From Streptomyces erythrochromogenes (GTDB lineage Bacteria > Actinomycetota > Actinomycetes > Streptomycetales > Streptomycetaceae), in contig NZ_CP108036.1 in NCBI RefSeq assembly GCF_036170895.1, positions 434,001 to 498,000 on the forward strand: a stretch of 64,000 nucleotides of DNA, written 5' to 3'. The notes beneath the pieces were generated by a model. The model was not told the origin of the DNA. It did not search any database and worked only from the letters and a program-made list of their open reading frames with translations. This document shows positions 21,087 through 22,968 of this stretch, one piece after another. The position numbers were made by a program, and so were the translations under genes. How positions within the stretch are numbered: the first letter of the stretch is position 1; the number at the start of each line of letters is the position of its first letter.

Positions 21087-21794
21087 TTGACGACAGCAAT
21101 CGAAGTCTTCACAGTCCGGCCATACACCCCGCACTGCCAGGTGATCAACGATGAAGGCGATCACGCCGTCATCGGCATCTCGCCTGGCAACAGCTATTTC
21201 TCAGCACAGCGCGTCCTAGACCTCGCCCAGTGGGGCATGCGCAACTTCGCGCAGGTCGACCTCATTTACACCGACATGCATGTCGCGGAGATGTACGAGG
21301 CCCTCGGATACGGCGAGGACGAAGCACGCCGCAAGGCGGTGAAGAACCTGCGCGGAGTCCGCGCCAAGGTCAACAACGCCGCCGCCGAAGCCGACCCCAC
21401 CGGCGTCCGCCTCCGGGCCCGTCCGATGTCGTCCCTCACCGACATCCCGGCGTACCGGAGCCTCCACAACCACCTGAACAATCTGCTCGACATCGACCCG
21501 GAGTTCCGCGAGACCTGCAACTCCCTTGTCGACGTGTTCCTCTCATCGAAGGTGCTGAACGGGAAGGCTGCCACCCCCCGTCAGCGCGAGGTCTGCCTGG
21601 AGTACGTCTGCGCCGAGGCGCCGCTGTTCCTGGACACGCCCGCCATCCTGGGCGTGCCGTCCTCCCTCAACTGCTACCACCAGCTCCTGCCCATGGCGGA
21701 ACTGCTCTACTCGCGCGGCTCGGGGCTTCGCGCCTCACGCAACCAGGGCCACGCCATCATCACCCCCGCCGAAGGAGACTCCGATGCCCACTGA
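21087..21794 (+). CDS. tRNA-dependent cyclodipeptide synthase, Rv2275-like
   Basis: A 235-residue enzyme that joins two amino acids from aminoacyl-tRNAs into a diketopiperazine. The covalent nucleophile is Ser32 in GISPGNSYFS. Other active-site residues are Tyr173 and Glu177 (EYVCAEAPLFL) and Tyr197 (SLNCYHQ). Spacing from serine to Glu (145) and Glu to Tyr (20) equals that of Rv2275 (Ser88, Glu233, Tyr253), the M. tuberculosis cyclo(Tyr-Tyr) synthase, as I recall it. Long stretches, such as LDTPAILGVPSSLNCYHQ and GSGLRASRNQGHAI, look almost the same. The N-terminal extension of Rv2275 is absent. TTG 21087 is chosen because no ATG or GTG occurs in frame between the stop at 20967 and this point. 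It overlaps the P450 gene by 11 bases. Cyclo(Tyr-Tyr) as product is inferred. Confidence 0.93.
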   Translation: MTTAIEVFTVRPYTPHCQVINDEGDHAVIGISPGNSYFSAQRVLDLAQWGMRNFAQVDLIYTDMHVAEMYEALGYGEDEARRKAVKNLRGVRAKVNNAAAEADPTGVRLRARPMSSLTDIPAYRSLHNHLNNLLDIDPEFRETCNSLVDVFLSSKVLNGKAATPRQREVCLEYVCAEAPLFLDTPAILGVPSSLNCYHQLLPMAELLYSRGSGLRASRNQGHAIITPAEGDSDAH

Positions 21795-22968
21795 CACCCT
21801 CCTCGACTTCCCGTTCTCCGCACGCGGCGACCAACTCCCGGCCGAGGTCGCGCAGTTGCGCGACGAGCCGGTCAAGCGTGTCCGCACGATAGCCGGTGAC
21901 GAGGCCTGGCTGGTCTCGTCCTATTCACTCTGCAAGCAGGTCCTCGAAGATCCGCGGTTCAGCCTGAAGGACACCTCGGCCCCCGGCGTGCCCCGGCAGT
22001 ACGCGCTGACGATCCCGCCCGAGGTCGTCAACAACATGGGCAACATCACCGGCGCCGGCCTGCGCAAGGCCGTGCTCAAGGCGATCAACCCGAAGACCGG
22101 CGACCTCACCGGCTGGATGCGCGACCAGGCGAACAGCCTCGTCGACGGCCTCCTGCGCAGCGGCGCGCCGGTGGACCTGCGCGGCCGGTTCACCAACCCG
22201 TACGCGGAGAACCTCCACTGCCGCATCCTCGGCATCCCGGAGGCCGACGCCCCGCAGCTGGCCGCCAGCCTCGACATCGCGTTCATGAACTCGGCCTGCC
22301 CCGTCACGGGCGCCAAGCTCAACTGGGACCGCGACATGGCCTACATGGTGGAGCGGCTCGACGACCCGGCCACGGTCGGCCTGATGGCCGAGCTCGCCGC
22401 GCTGCGCGAGGACCCCGACTACGCGCACCTGACGGACGAGATGCTGGCGGTCGTCGGCGTCACGCTGTTCGGCGCCGGCGTCATCTCGACCATGGGCTTC
22501 CTGACGATGGCGATCGTCTCGCTCCTGCAGAACCCCGACGTGTGGGAGCAGCTGCGCAAGGCTCCGGAGAAGATCCCGGCCGCCGTGGACGAGCTCCTGC
22601 GGGTGAACCTGTCGATCGCCGACGGGCTGCCGCGGCTCGCGCTGGAGGACGTCACCCTCGGCGACGTCGAGGTCAAGAAGGGCGAGCTGCTGCTCGTCCT
22701 GGTCGAGGCCGCCAACACCGACCCGGCCGTGTACTCCGACCCGCACGTCTTCGACATCGACCGCGCGAACGCCGGTACGCACCTGTCGTTCGGCGGCGGG
22801 CCGCACTACTGCCCGGCCACCGCCCTCGGCAAGCGGCACACGGAGATCGCCATCGAGGTCCTGCTGGAGAAGATGCCCAACCTCCAGCTGGCCGTGCCCT
22901 TCGACCAGCTCGTCTGGCGCACCCGTTTCATGAAGCGCCTGCCGGAGCGGCTCCCCGTCCTCTGGTAG
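21784..22968 (+). CDS. Cytochrome P450, CYP121-like (mycocyclosin synthase homologue)
   Basis: A 394-residue P450 starting inside the end of the CDPS gene, after GAAGGAG. The haem cysteine is Cys343 in GGGPHYCPATALG. It matches CYP121 of M. tuberculosis almost end to end: FPFSARGD at residue 9, AWLVSSY, PPEVVNNMGNI, INWDRD-like NWDRD at 180, FGAGVIST at 229, and the identical C-terminus ERLPVLW. CYP121 cross-links the two tyrosines of cyclo(Tyr-Tyr) to mycocyclosin. Pocket residues Asn85, Phe168, Trp182, Thr229 and Ser237 of CYP121 are kept here as Asn84, Phe167, Trp181, Thr227 and Ser235. Five others differ: Met62 to Leu61, Val78 to Ile77, Phe280 to Ile278, Gln385 to Met383 and Arg386 to Lys384. 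No ferredoxin gene is beside it. Confidence 0.94.
   Translation: MPTDTLLDFPFSARGDQLPAEVAQLRDEPVKRVRTIAGDEAWLVSSYSLCKQVLEDPRFSLKDTSAPGVPRQYALTIPPEVVNNMGNITGAGLRKAVLKAINPKTGDLTGWMRDQANSLVDGLLRSGAPVDLRGRFTNPYAENLHCRILGIPEADAPQLAASLDIAFMNSACPVTGAKLNWDRDMAYMVERLDDPATVGLMAELAALREDPDYAHLTDEMLAVVGVTLFGAGVISTMGFLTMAIVSLLQNPDVWEQLRKAPEKIPAAVDELLRVNLSIADGLPRLALEDVTLGDVEVKKGELLLVLVEAANTDPAVYSDPHVFDIDRANAGTHLSFGGGPHYCPATALGKRHTEIAIEVLLEKMPNLQLAVPFDQLVWRTRFMKRLPERLPVLW

What the first reader, a model, noticed from the sequence alone, without database searches (positions are those of the whole stretch)
21087..22968. Mycocyclosin-type CDPS-P450 pair in a Streptomyces-type genome
A cyclodipeptide synthase and an overlapping P450 closely resemble the M. 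tuberculosis pair Rv2275 and CYP121. The CDPS has the same catalytic residues and spacing (Ser32, Tyr173, Glu177, Tyr197), and the P450 shares near-identical N- and C-terminal blocks with CYP121. The resemblance is recalled from memory of the family, not computed. CYP121 has mostly been discussed as a mycobacterial enzyme and drug target, so a compact two-gene copy outside that genus, with its own promoter region and terminator, suggests either an older shared origin or transfer. The locus predicts cyclo(Tyr-Tyr) and a cross-linked product.
Basis: partly seen in the sequence, partly recalled or inferred. Interest (0 to 1): 0.92.

Follow-up and report, generated by a model that had tools for sequence, protein, structure and literature searches.

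The report
Known dityrosine operon, unreported leader RNA
The gene pair is a Streptomyces member of an already known two-enzyme pathway that joins two tyrosines into a ring and oxidises it, but directly in front of it sits a small folded RNA, shared by nearly all the Streptomyces relatives examined and missing from the RNA catalogue searched, that probably controls the pathway.

Summary
In detail: 21087-21794 encodes a cyclodipeptide synthase (CDPS) and 21784-22968 an overlapping P450. The claim that the pair is notable outside mycobacteria does not. The P450 is 86% identical to solved GymB1 of Streptomyces flavidovirens and 61% to CYP121; the CDPS carries the published cyclo(Tyr-Tyr) pocket motifs. 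A 2022 review describes such 'gym' loci as widely distributed in Streptomyces; six expressed in S. albus gave mycocyclosin and guanine and hypoxanthine adducts. Both trees place the pair among Streptomycetaceae, with Mycobacterium, Nocardia and Longimycelium in one separate clade.

The new part lies just upstream: a ~57-nt nested hairpin (21019-21077) ending at the Shine-Dalgarno sequence. In the genomes of the same genus compared it lies upstream of 58 of 59 CDPS genes at least 60% identical, 19 of 20 at 40-59% and 0 of 36 listed below 40%. Compensatory changes support the fold. A variant precedes small LuxR-type regulators. No match in six mycobacterial and Nocardia loci, none in Rfam, and no description in the papers I could search. 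I read it as a cis-regulatory leader, probably acting on translation. Ligand or partner unknown; no expression data.

The parts
21011..21016 (+). TACCTT, candidate -10 hexamer, where many relatives have TAACTT (weak, inferred)
   Evidence: Place relative to the leader resembles the -10 of 26 of 54 relatives; read; not found by the sigma-70 scan
21019..21077 (+). Conserved structured leader RNA (match of model R1; R2 at 21021-21077)
   Evidence: R1 73.3 bits, E 1.4e-12, the other four own-genome matches have E 2 or more; R2 61.9 bits. The window is a row of both models
21026..21068 (+). P1 stem: 21026-21031 pairs with 21063-21068
   Evidence: Covariation; single-sequence fold
21036..21057 (+). 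P2: 21036-21037 pairs with 21056-21057
   Evidence: 98.1% of cells paired but no covariation
21039..21053 (+). P3 hairpin: 21039-21043 with 21049-21053, loop ACAGG
   Evidence: 97.8% of cells paired, 3 of 5 pairs with changes on both sides
21070..21075 (+). Shine-Dalgarno-like AAAGGA, one base after P1
   Evidence: Sequence; similar purine-rich site in relatives
21087..21794 (+). Cyclodipeptide synthase, cyclo(Tyr-Tyr) type, TTG start
21784..22968 (+). Cytochrome P450 of the GymB/CYP121 family
23007..23039 (+). GC-rich hairpin between convergent genes, possible terminator without T-run
   Evidence: Fold of 22960-23060, z -2.84; not found by the terminator scan

Best explanation
A gym-type two-gene operon. 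The CDPS joins two tyrosines, taken from Tyr-tRNA, into cyclo(L-Tyr-L-Tyr). The P450, translated from an overlapping start, oxidises it to mycocyclosin and probably also couples it to guanine or hypoxanthine (guatyromycines). In relatives with a clear promoter the transcript should begin at, or a few bases into, a ~57-nt leader RNA: an outer stem P1, a conserved asymmetric internal loop (5' CACA, 3' mostly GACUN) and an inner P2/P3 hairpin with a five-base loop. P1 ends one base before the Shine-Dalgarno sequence in the window and zero to about five in relatives. Stabilising P1 should hinder ribosome entry; opening it should allow it. I infer a translational switch, or a protein- or RNA-binding site, shared by cyclo(Tyr-Tyr) and related CDPS-P450 operons and by small LuxR-type regulators. 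Shown here: gene identities, pocket motifs, leader conservation, structure by covariation, association. Inferred: products in this strain, transcription start, switch action, ligand.
For: P450 86% to GymB1 and the same as GymB1 at all 16 residues listed within 5 A of the ligand in CYP121 entry 3G5H. CDPS motifs P1 VGITMLFN and P2 LVFSQLP fit the published cyclo(Tyr-Tyr) set VG[IV]TMLFN / L.[FY].QLP. Review: six gym loci expressed, products named. Leader upstream of 58 of 59, 19 of 20 and 0 of 36 CDPS matches by identity band. Mean pairwise identity 0.695 in the 60 nt from the element's start, against 0.19-0.38 in four 60-nt windows upstream and 0.40-0.47 in four downstream, 54 loci. Covariation: 52 cells changed on both sides, shuffles 16.7, slid partners 0-6; combined set 33, shuffles 8.3, slid 2-7. 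L050, from another family and in no row of R1, scores 64.7 bits. Nine LuxR leaders aligned alone give the same topology. Of 44 fetched regions whose DNA I did not already hold, 32 have the element before a CDPS gene and 8 before a LuxR gene.
Against: No transcript, ligand or expression data. Folding energies are only mildly better than shuffles: z -0.9 in the window, -0.6 to -2.4 in five relatives, and -0.03 to 0.80 in four of six LuxR leaders, -1.0 and -1.1 in the others. In one search the lowest-energy folds of L201 and L046 do not show the structure, and those of L207 and L034 show P1 but another inner part. P2 does not covary. RNAalifold chose another P1 register. The shuffles do not remove relatedness. 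In L050 the element lies about 430 nt before the CDPS match, in one other genome 234 nt. The loop does not track product class cleanly: of 22 tryptophan-type loci 11 have GACAA and 9 GACU. The LuxR context argues against a sensor of the pathway product alone. All four new cyclo(Tyr-Tyr) CDPSs of the NYH type in PMC5816076 also make cyclo(Tyr-Phe) and cyclo(Tyr-Ala) in E. coli. I did not see the primary gym paper, and the review passages do not give products per cluster.
Confidence: 0.75

Rival explanations
1. The conserved leader is a DNA operator for a regulator, not a functional RNA.
For: It lies just downstream of the promoter in 26 of 54 relatives. Small LuxR regulators carry a related element before their own genes, as an autoregulator might.
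Against: Nested stems with an internal loop and compensatory changes in P1 and P3 are expected of RNA. The element ends at the Shine-Dalgarno sequence. The own genome has the element but no relative of that LuxR protein at E 1e-20 among the candidates scored.
Confidence: 0.15
2. The leader binds a protein or an RNA (for example the CDPS itself, a tRNA or a ribosomal protein) rather than a small molecule.
For: CDPSs use aminoacyl-tRNA (PMC5816076 passages). No small molecule common to all gene contexts is evident.
Against: No CDPS was found by tblastn in the nine short regions where the element precedes a LuxR gene. Rfam, which holds known protein-binding leaders, gives no match.
Confidence: 0.35
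3. The upstream conservation is coding: an N-terminal extension of the CDPS, or a leader peptide with tandem Tyr codons (MSYYPED...).
For: The CDPS frame is open for 39 codons upstream (open frame 274 aa). A short frame with two Tyr codons occurs in the closest clade.
Against: One- and two-base length differences inside the leader break any frame. The Tyr-Tyr scan found a closed frame in 7 of 124 entries; it could not see frames running on past the CDPS start, as in the window. By eye the frame is not kept outside the closest clade.
Confidence: 0.05
4. The pair is a strict mycocyclosin synthase pair like M. tuberculosis Rv2275/CYP121, with no nucleobase transfer.
For: 11 of the 16 CYP121 ligand-contact residues are kept. 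Mycocyclosin is among the gym products.
Against: At the other five positions the window matches GymB1, including Lys384 where CYP121 and four mycobacterial relatives have Arg.
Confidence: 0.2

Closest known systems
gym gene cluster; GymB1 of Streptomyces flavidovirens (PDB 8q6z)
   Same: Same two-gene layout; P450 86% identical and the same at all 16 ligand-contact positions; the same leader class in front (L088, itself a row of model R1)
   Different: Different species; product mixture of the window's operon not measured
M. tuberculosis Rv2275 / CYP121
   Same: Same enzyme families; 64% and 61% identity; same CDPS pocket type
   Different: CYP121 has Asn74, Phe280, Arg386 and Gln385 (Ala in two of four relatives) where the others examined have Tyr, Ile (Val in two), Lys and Met or Ile; no leader match in four mycobacterial loci (L051-L053, and L047 which is mycobacterial by tree placement)
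PtmB / GutD guanitrypmycin loci (cyclo(Trp-Trp) plus guanine or hypoxanthine)
   Same: Related P450 (PtmB 58%), CDPS-P450 order; L048-L050, whose P450s group with PtmB, carry the leader
   Different: CDPS P1 motif LGVALFF[AS] in L048-L050 instead of VG[IV]TMLFN
Streptomyces candidates dauA, livJ, pntA, asfR (PMC11109978, passages)
   Same: Structured 5' leaders in Streptomyces, dauA including the Shine-Dalgarno sequence
   Different: Other downstream genes; 'cyclodipeptide', 'CDPS' and 'LuxR' do not occur in its main text

Membership tests
NYH cyclodipeptide synthase, cyclo(Tyr-Tyr) group | Asn, Tyr, His trio and catalytic Ser, Tyr, Glu, Tyr | tested here: met
   SNYEYH at 32, 35, 173, 177, 197, 198
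NYH cyclodipeptide synthase, cyclo(Tyr-Tyr) group | P1 motif VG[IV]TMLFN with Asn at position 8, P2 motif L.[FY].QLP | tested here: met
   VGITMLFN and LVFSQLP
NYH cyclodipeptide synthase, cyclo(Tyr-Tyr) group | Makes cyclo(Tyr-Tyr) | not testable with these tools
   Needs expression
gym locus (CDPS plus GymB-type P450) | Adjacent pair whose P450 groups with GymB1 | tested here: met
   86% identity; nine-row clade with window and L088 (= GymB1) at 100/99
gym locus (CDPS plus GymB-type P450) | Product mixture of mycocyclosin and nucleobase adducts | not testable with these tools
   Stated for six loci in a review
CYP121 proper (mycobacterial mycocyclosin synthase) | Phe280 and Arg386 in the pocket (a feature I chose because it separates the mycobacterial rows) | tested here: not met
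   Window has Ile278 and Lys384
NascB-type or PtmB/GutD-type P450 | Groups with those enzymes | tested here: not met
   NascB by score only; PtmB in the tree; no GutD sequence itself was used
Any Rfam 15 family | Match at gathering score | tested here: not met
   None in 18000-26000 nor in ten related loci; three permissive matches in 20850-21120 with E 1 to 3.3, none overlapping 21019-21077
Riboswitch | Conserved structure in the 5' leader | tested here: met
   that it is transcribed is inferred
Riboswitch | Binds a small molecule and changes expression | not testable with these tools
   Needs probing and reporters

The most novel reading that the evidence does not exclude
The leader is a new riboswitch class of Streptomyces that senses a molecule tied to cyclodipeptide-nucleobase metabolism (a cyclodipeptide, its oxidised product, or the coupled purine) and sets translation of the CDPS-P450 operon, with a variant class controlling solitary LuxR-type regulators. 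It would be a switch dedicated to secondary metabolism.
Probability: 0.3. Interest if true: 0.85.

Novelty: new variant of a known kind. Interest (0 to 1): 0.6.

Why it matters
Gym and gut pathways are published chemistry, but in what I searched I found no account of how they are switched on; one related cluster was reported silent under standard laboratory conditions (PMC13122648, passages). A dedicated RNA in front of nearly all the Streptomyces copies examined gives a concrete handle: change the leader and see whether the operon turns on. It would be an RNA family to catalogue, and it separates CYP121-type CDPS loci, decayed ones included, from other CDPS types. The pocket comparison also shows the mycobacterial enzymes as the unusual branch of their family, which bears on using homologues as models for CYP121.

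Tried and rejected
Mycocyclosin pair as a rarity outside mycobacteria: rejected.

Leader peptide with tandem Tyr codons: seen in the closest clade, not kept outside it.

Loop bases as a product code: tabulated, not clean.

Neighbouring genes as part of the cluster: each of four neighbours of the window pair matched in at most 6 of 80 named loci, within the 4 kb or less held on each side.

Streptomycetaceae as proven source of the mycobacterial pair: undecided (AU p 0.31).

R1 hits not before a CDPS match (17 of 94): six (L178-L181, L184, L186) keep P450 or CDPS pieces by tblastn, so I take them for decayed CDPS-P450 loci (for L184 and L186 only short P450 pieces); seven lie before LuxR genes (L183, L185, L187-L191); L182 has 49.8 bits and no gene I could name; L192-L194 score 31-33 bits and are probably chance. 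From other searches: L195 is a decayed CDPS locus, L265 looks like one by eye, L196 and L298 (30 and 34.5 bits) are probably chance.

Literature: ten searches, open-licence PMC only. 'GymB1' gave no paper. Seen as passages: PMC10092475, PMC7954767, PMC5767969, PMC13122648, PMC11084333, PMC11109978, PMC2864571, PMC11610984; PMC5816076 as passages plus section 11. All others as listings. None of what I saw describes a leader RNA for CDPS genes.

Full report
WHAT IS THERE. The window is 434001-498000 of contig 1 of an 8.6 Mb genome in two contigs. Its genus is not named by the tool; I take it to be Streptomyces because the closest named proteins and loci are. The CDPS (21087-21794) and P450 (21784-22968) are real and overlap by 11 nt. 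The genome has one CDPS match; its other 24 P450 matches are at most 35% identical. The solved-structure search ranks GymB1 (8q6z, 763 bits) far above CYP121 (533) and NascB (170). Identities over aligned residues: GymB1 337/392, 8q6x 256/388, CYP121 239/391, 9o4d 233/388, PtmB 225/385; Rv2275 145/226, AlbC 72/212. The GymB1 fragment is identical to the P450 of S. flavidovirens DSM 40150 (L088); UniRef names an S. flavidovirens protein GymB1 (P0180).

WHAT IT MAKES. The CDPS pocket motifs fit the published cyclo(Tyr-Tyr) group. That paper adds four tested enzymes from Streptomyces and Streptacidiphilus with cyclo(Tyr-Tyr) at 58-71% of product and cyclo(Tyr-Phe) and cyclo(Tyr-Ala) beside it (PMC5816076, passages and section 11). 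Of 16 residues listed within 5 A of the ligand in CYP121 entry 3G5H (PMC11084333, passages; that 3G5H is the substrate complex is recalled), the window keeps 11 and differs at five: Leu61, Ile77, Ile278, Met383, Lys384. GymB1 matches the window at all 16. Arg386 occurs in CYP121 and four mycobacterial relatives (one placed by tree only). All other rows with a letter there have Lys: 78 gym-type rows counted and 5 of 5 PtmB-like rows; one truncated row has a gap. Phe280 is likewise mycobacterial only. The review states that six two-gene gym loci in S. albus gave mycocyclosin, a guaninyl and a hypoxanthine product, and that their P450s do both reactions (PMC10092475, passages). I therefore expect a mixture; which product dominates here is open.

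DISTRIBUTION AND TREES. A search seeded with the mycobacterial CDPS and two conserved peptides found 140 relatives and kept 80. All 80 carry the CDPS followed by the P450: three Mycobacterium, two Nocardia, one Longimycelium, 74 Streptomycetaceae (families for the rows in the tree, otherwise by genus name). Of 392 genomes of the window's genus, 135 have some CDPS match. Careful trees of 46, 43 and 41 rows, built on 38 chosen loci (33 of the 80 named, five unnamed) plus references, put the window pair with S. virginiae and S. yangpuensis and, further out, S. flavidovirens. Mycobacterium, Nocardia and Longimycelium form one clade in both families (99/99 for the P450, 97/97; 99/98 for the CDPS). 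Deep branching among Streptomycetaceae is unresolved, so transfer against shared ancestry is open. One conflict: the P450 of L034 (99% to chain 8q6x) sits with L123, its CDPS with the window group.

THE LEADER. Upstream DNA of eight close relatives is nearly invariant over about 150 nt before the CDPS. Looking at 124 entries (some of them duplicate stretches) showed a shorter block just before the Shine-Dalgarno sequence: 114 by pattern, and L098, L101, L120 and L050 besides by model. From 54 non-redundant copies, six single folds agree on one structure. RNAalifold gives the same P2 and P3 but another register of P1; I used the register of the single folds. With it 92.9% of cells pair, 6 of 13 pairs show changes on both sides (shuffle mean 2.7, reached in 3 of 500), and 52 cells do, against 16.7 in shuffles and 0-6 in slid controls. 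The shuffles do not remove relatedness. Rows with a longer GC-rich stem fit this P1 register badly (17 of 54 unpaired at its outermost pair). Nine further single folds are less clear: L201 and L046 fold otherwise, L207 and L034 only in part as drawn.

ASSOCIATION. Model R1 has one significant match in the window's genome and 94 in 295 genomes of the genus, in 81 of them. Of the 94, 77 lie within 500 nt upstream of a CDPS match on the same strand. By CDPS identity to the window: 58 of 59 at 60% or more (the miss is a partial gene), 19 of 20 at 40-59%, 0 of 36 listed below 40%. R1 was built from such operons, several of them in these same genomes, so the first band is partly expected. The 40-59% band is a fairer test: that class gave one of the 54 rows (L048). 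L050, from another family, gave none and scores 64.7 bits, though about 430 nt before its CDPS match. In 394 genomes of the class, 16 have a match, 14 of them in the window's genus. R2 finds the leader in 80 of 81 sources that are not mycobacterial or Nocardia, many of them model rows or their kin (the miss is L087, which R1 scores at 30.6 bits), and in 0 of 6 mycobacterial and Nocardia sources.

SECOND CONTEXT. Seven fetched R1 hits precede a gene for a GerE/LuxR-type protein of 115-125 residues, with a start codon 4-10 nt after the match (Pfam on two of them). Nine of 199 genomes of the genus have that protein at E 1e-20. R1 scores on leaders of those loci run from 48.9 bits down to no match. 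Nine LuxR leaders aligned alone give the same topology, with 5 of 12 pairs changed on both sides. Model R2, from 26 rows of both classes, was run on 303 genomes of the order; 84 have a match. I fetched 60 of those places: 47 have a CDPS gene behind the element, 9 a LuxR gene, 2 a P450 without CDPS match, 2 neither. Sixteen of the 60 were DNA I already held; the 44 others are 32, 8, 2 and 2. In 29 of the 60 the element's core equals a model row (27 CDPS, 2 LuxR), so these are not independent of the models.

HOW IT MAY WORK. In 26 of 54 relatives a TTGACN-N16-19-TANNNT promoter ends within two bases of the element's first base (shuffles: mean 0.2, maximum 2), so transcription should start at or just inside it. 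P1 ends one base before the Shine-Dalgarno sequence in the window and zero to about five in relatives (by eye). Holding P1 shut should hinder ribosomes. What holds or opens it is unknown. The loop bases do not separate product classes cleanly: GACU in 106 of 114 tyrosine-type rows, and in 22 tryptophan-type rows GACAA 11, GACU 9, others 2 (tryptophan-type by tblastn similarity to L049, by P450 similarity, or by eye for decayed loci; L182 counted with the tyrosine type). The LuxR context suggests that the signal is not the pathway product alone. I give a ligand-binding switch 0.3 and a protein or RNA partner about 0.35.

KNOWN OR NEW. The gene pair is known. The leader matches no Rfam 15 family. 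My literature searches found no description of it (passages); subscription papers and supplements were not searched.

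Noticed in passing
L178, L179, L241, L279: Loci with the leader RNA and a P450 whose CDPS gene is missing or reduced to a remnant: apparently decaying CDPS-P450 operons that keep the leader.
   Followed up: partly
L034 (P450 99% to PDB 8q6x): CDPS groups with the window clade but the P450 groups with L123: possible partner exchange or fast P450 evolution.
   Followed up: partly
20937-20999 in the window: Two overlapping short frames (MPRSTGLSDR and MSYYPED...) conserved in the closest relatives only, the second with tandem Tyr codons.
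   Followed up: partly
21087-21794: CDPS gene has 65% GC and GC3 0.86, against 73% GC for the window and GC3 0.97 for the P450.
   Followed up: no
19966-20841 and relatives L065, L068, L070: A PhzF-like gene lies between the NMT1-like gene and the leader in the window but not in three close relatives: a local insertion or loss.
   Followed up: no
G012, G054, G074, G083, G227, G257, G278: Genomes holding both a cyclo(Tyr-Tyr)-type CDPS (89-90%) and a 41-43% identical one, each with its own leader match.
   Followed up: partly
L183, L185, L187-L191, L239, L240, L274, L276, L281, L287, L293, L296, L297: Small LuxR/GerE-type regulators with a related leader RNA; targets and function unknown.
   Followed up: partly
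L182, match at 2147-2207: A good leader match (49.8 bits) with no gene behind it that I could name.
   Followed up: no
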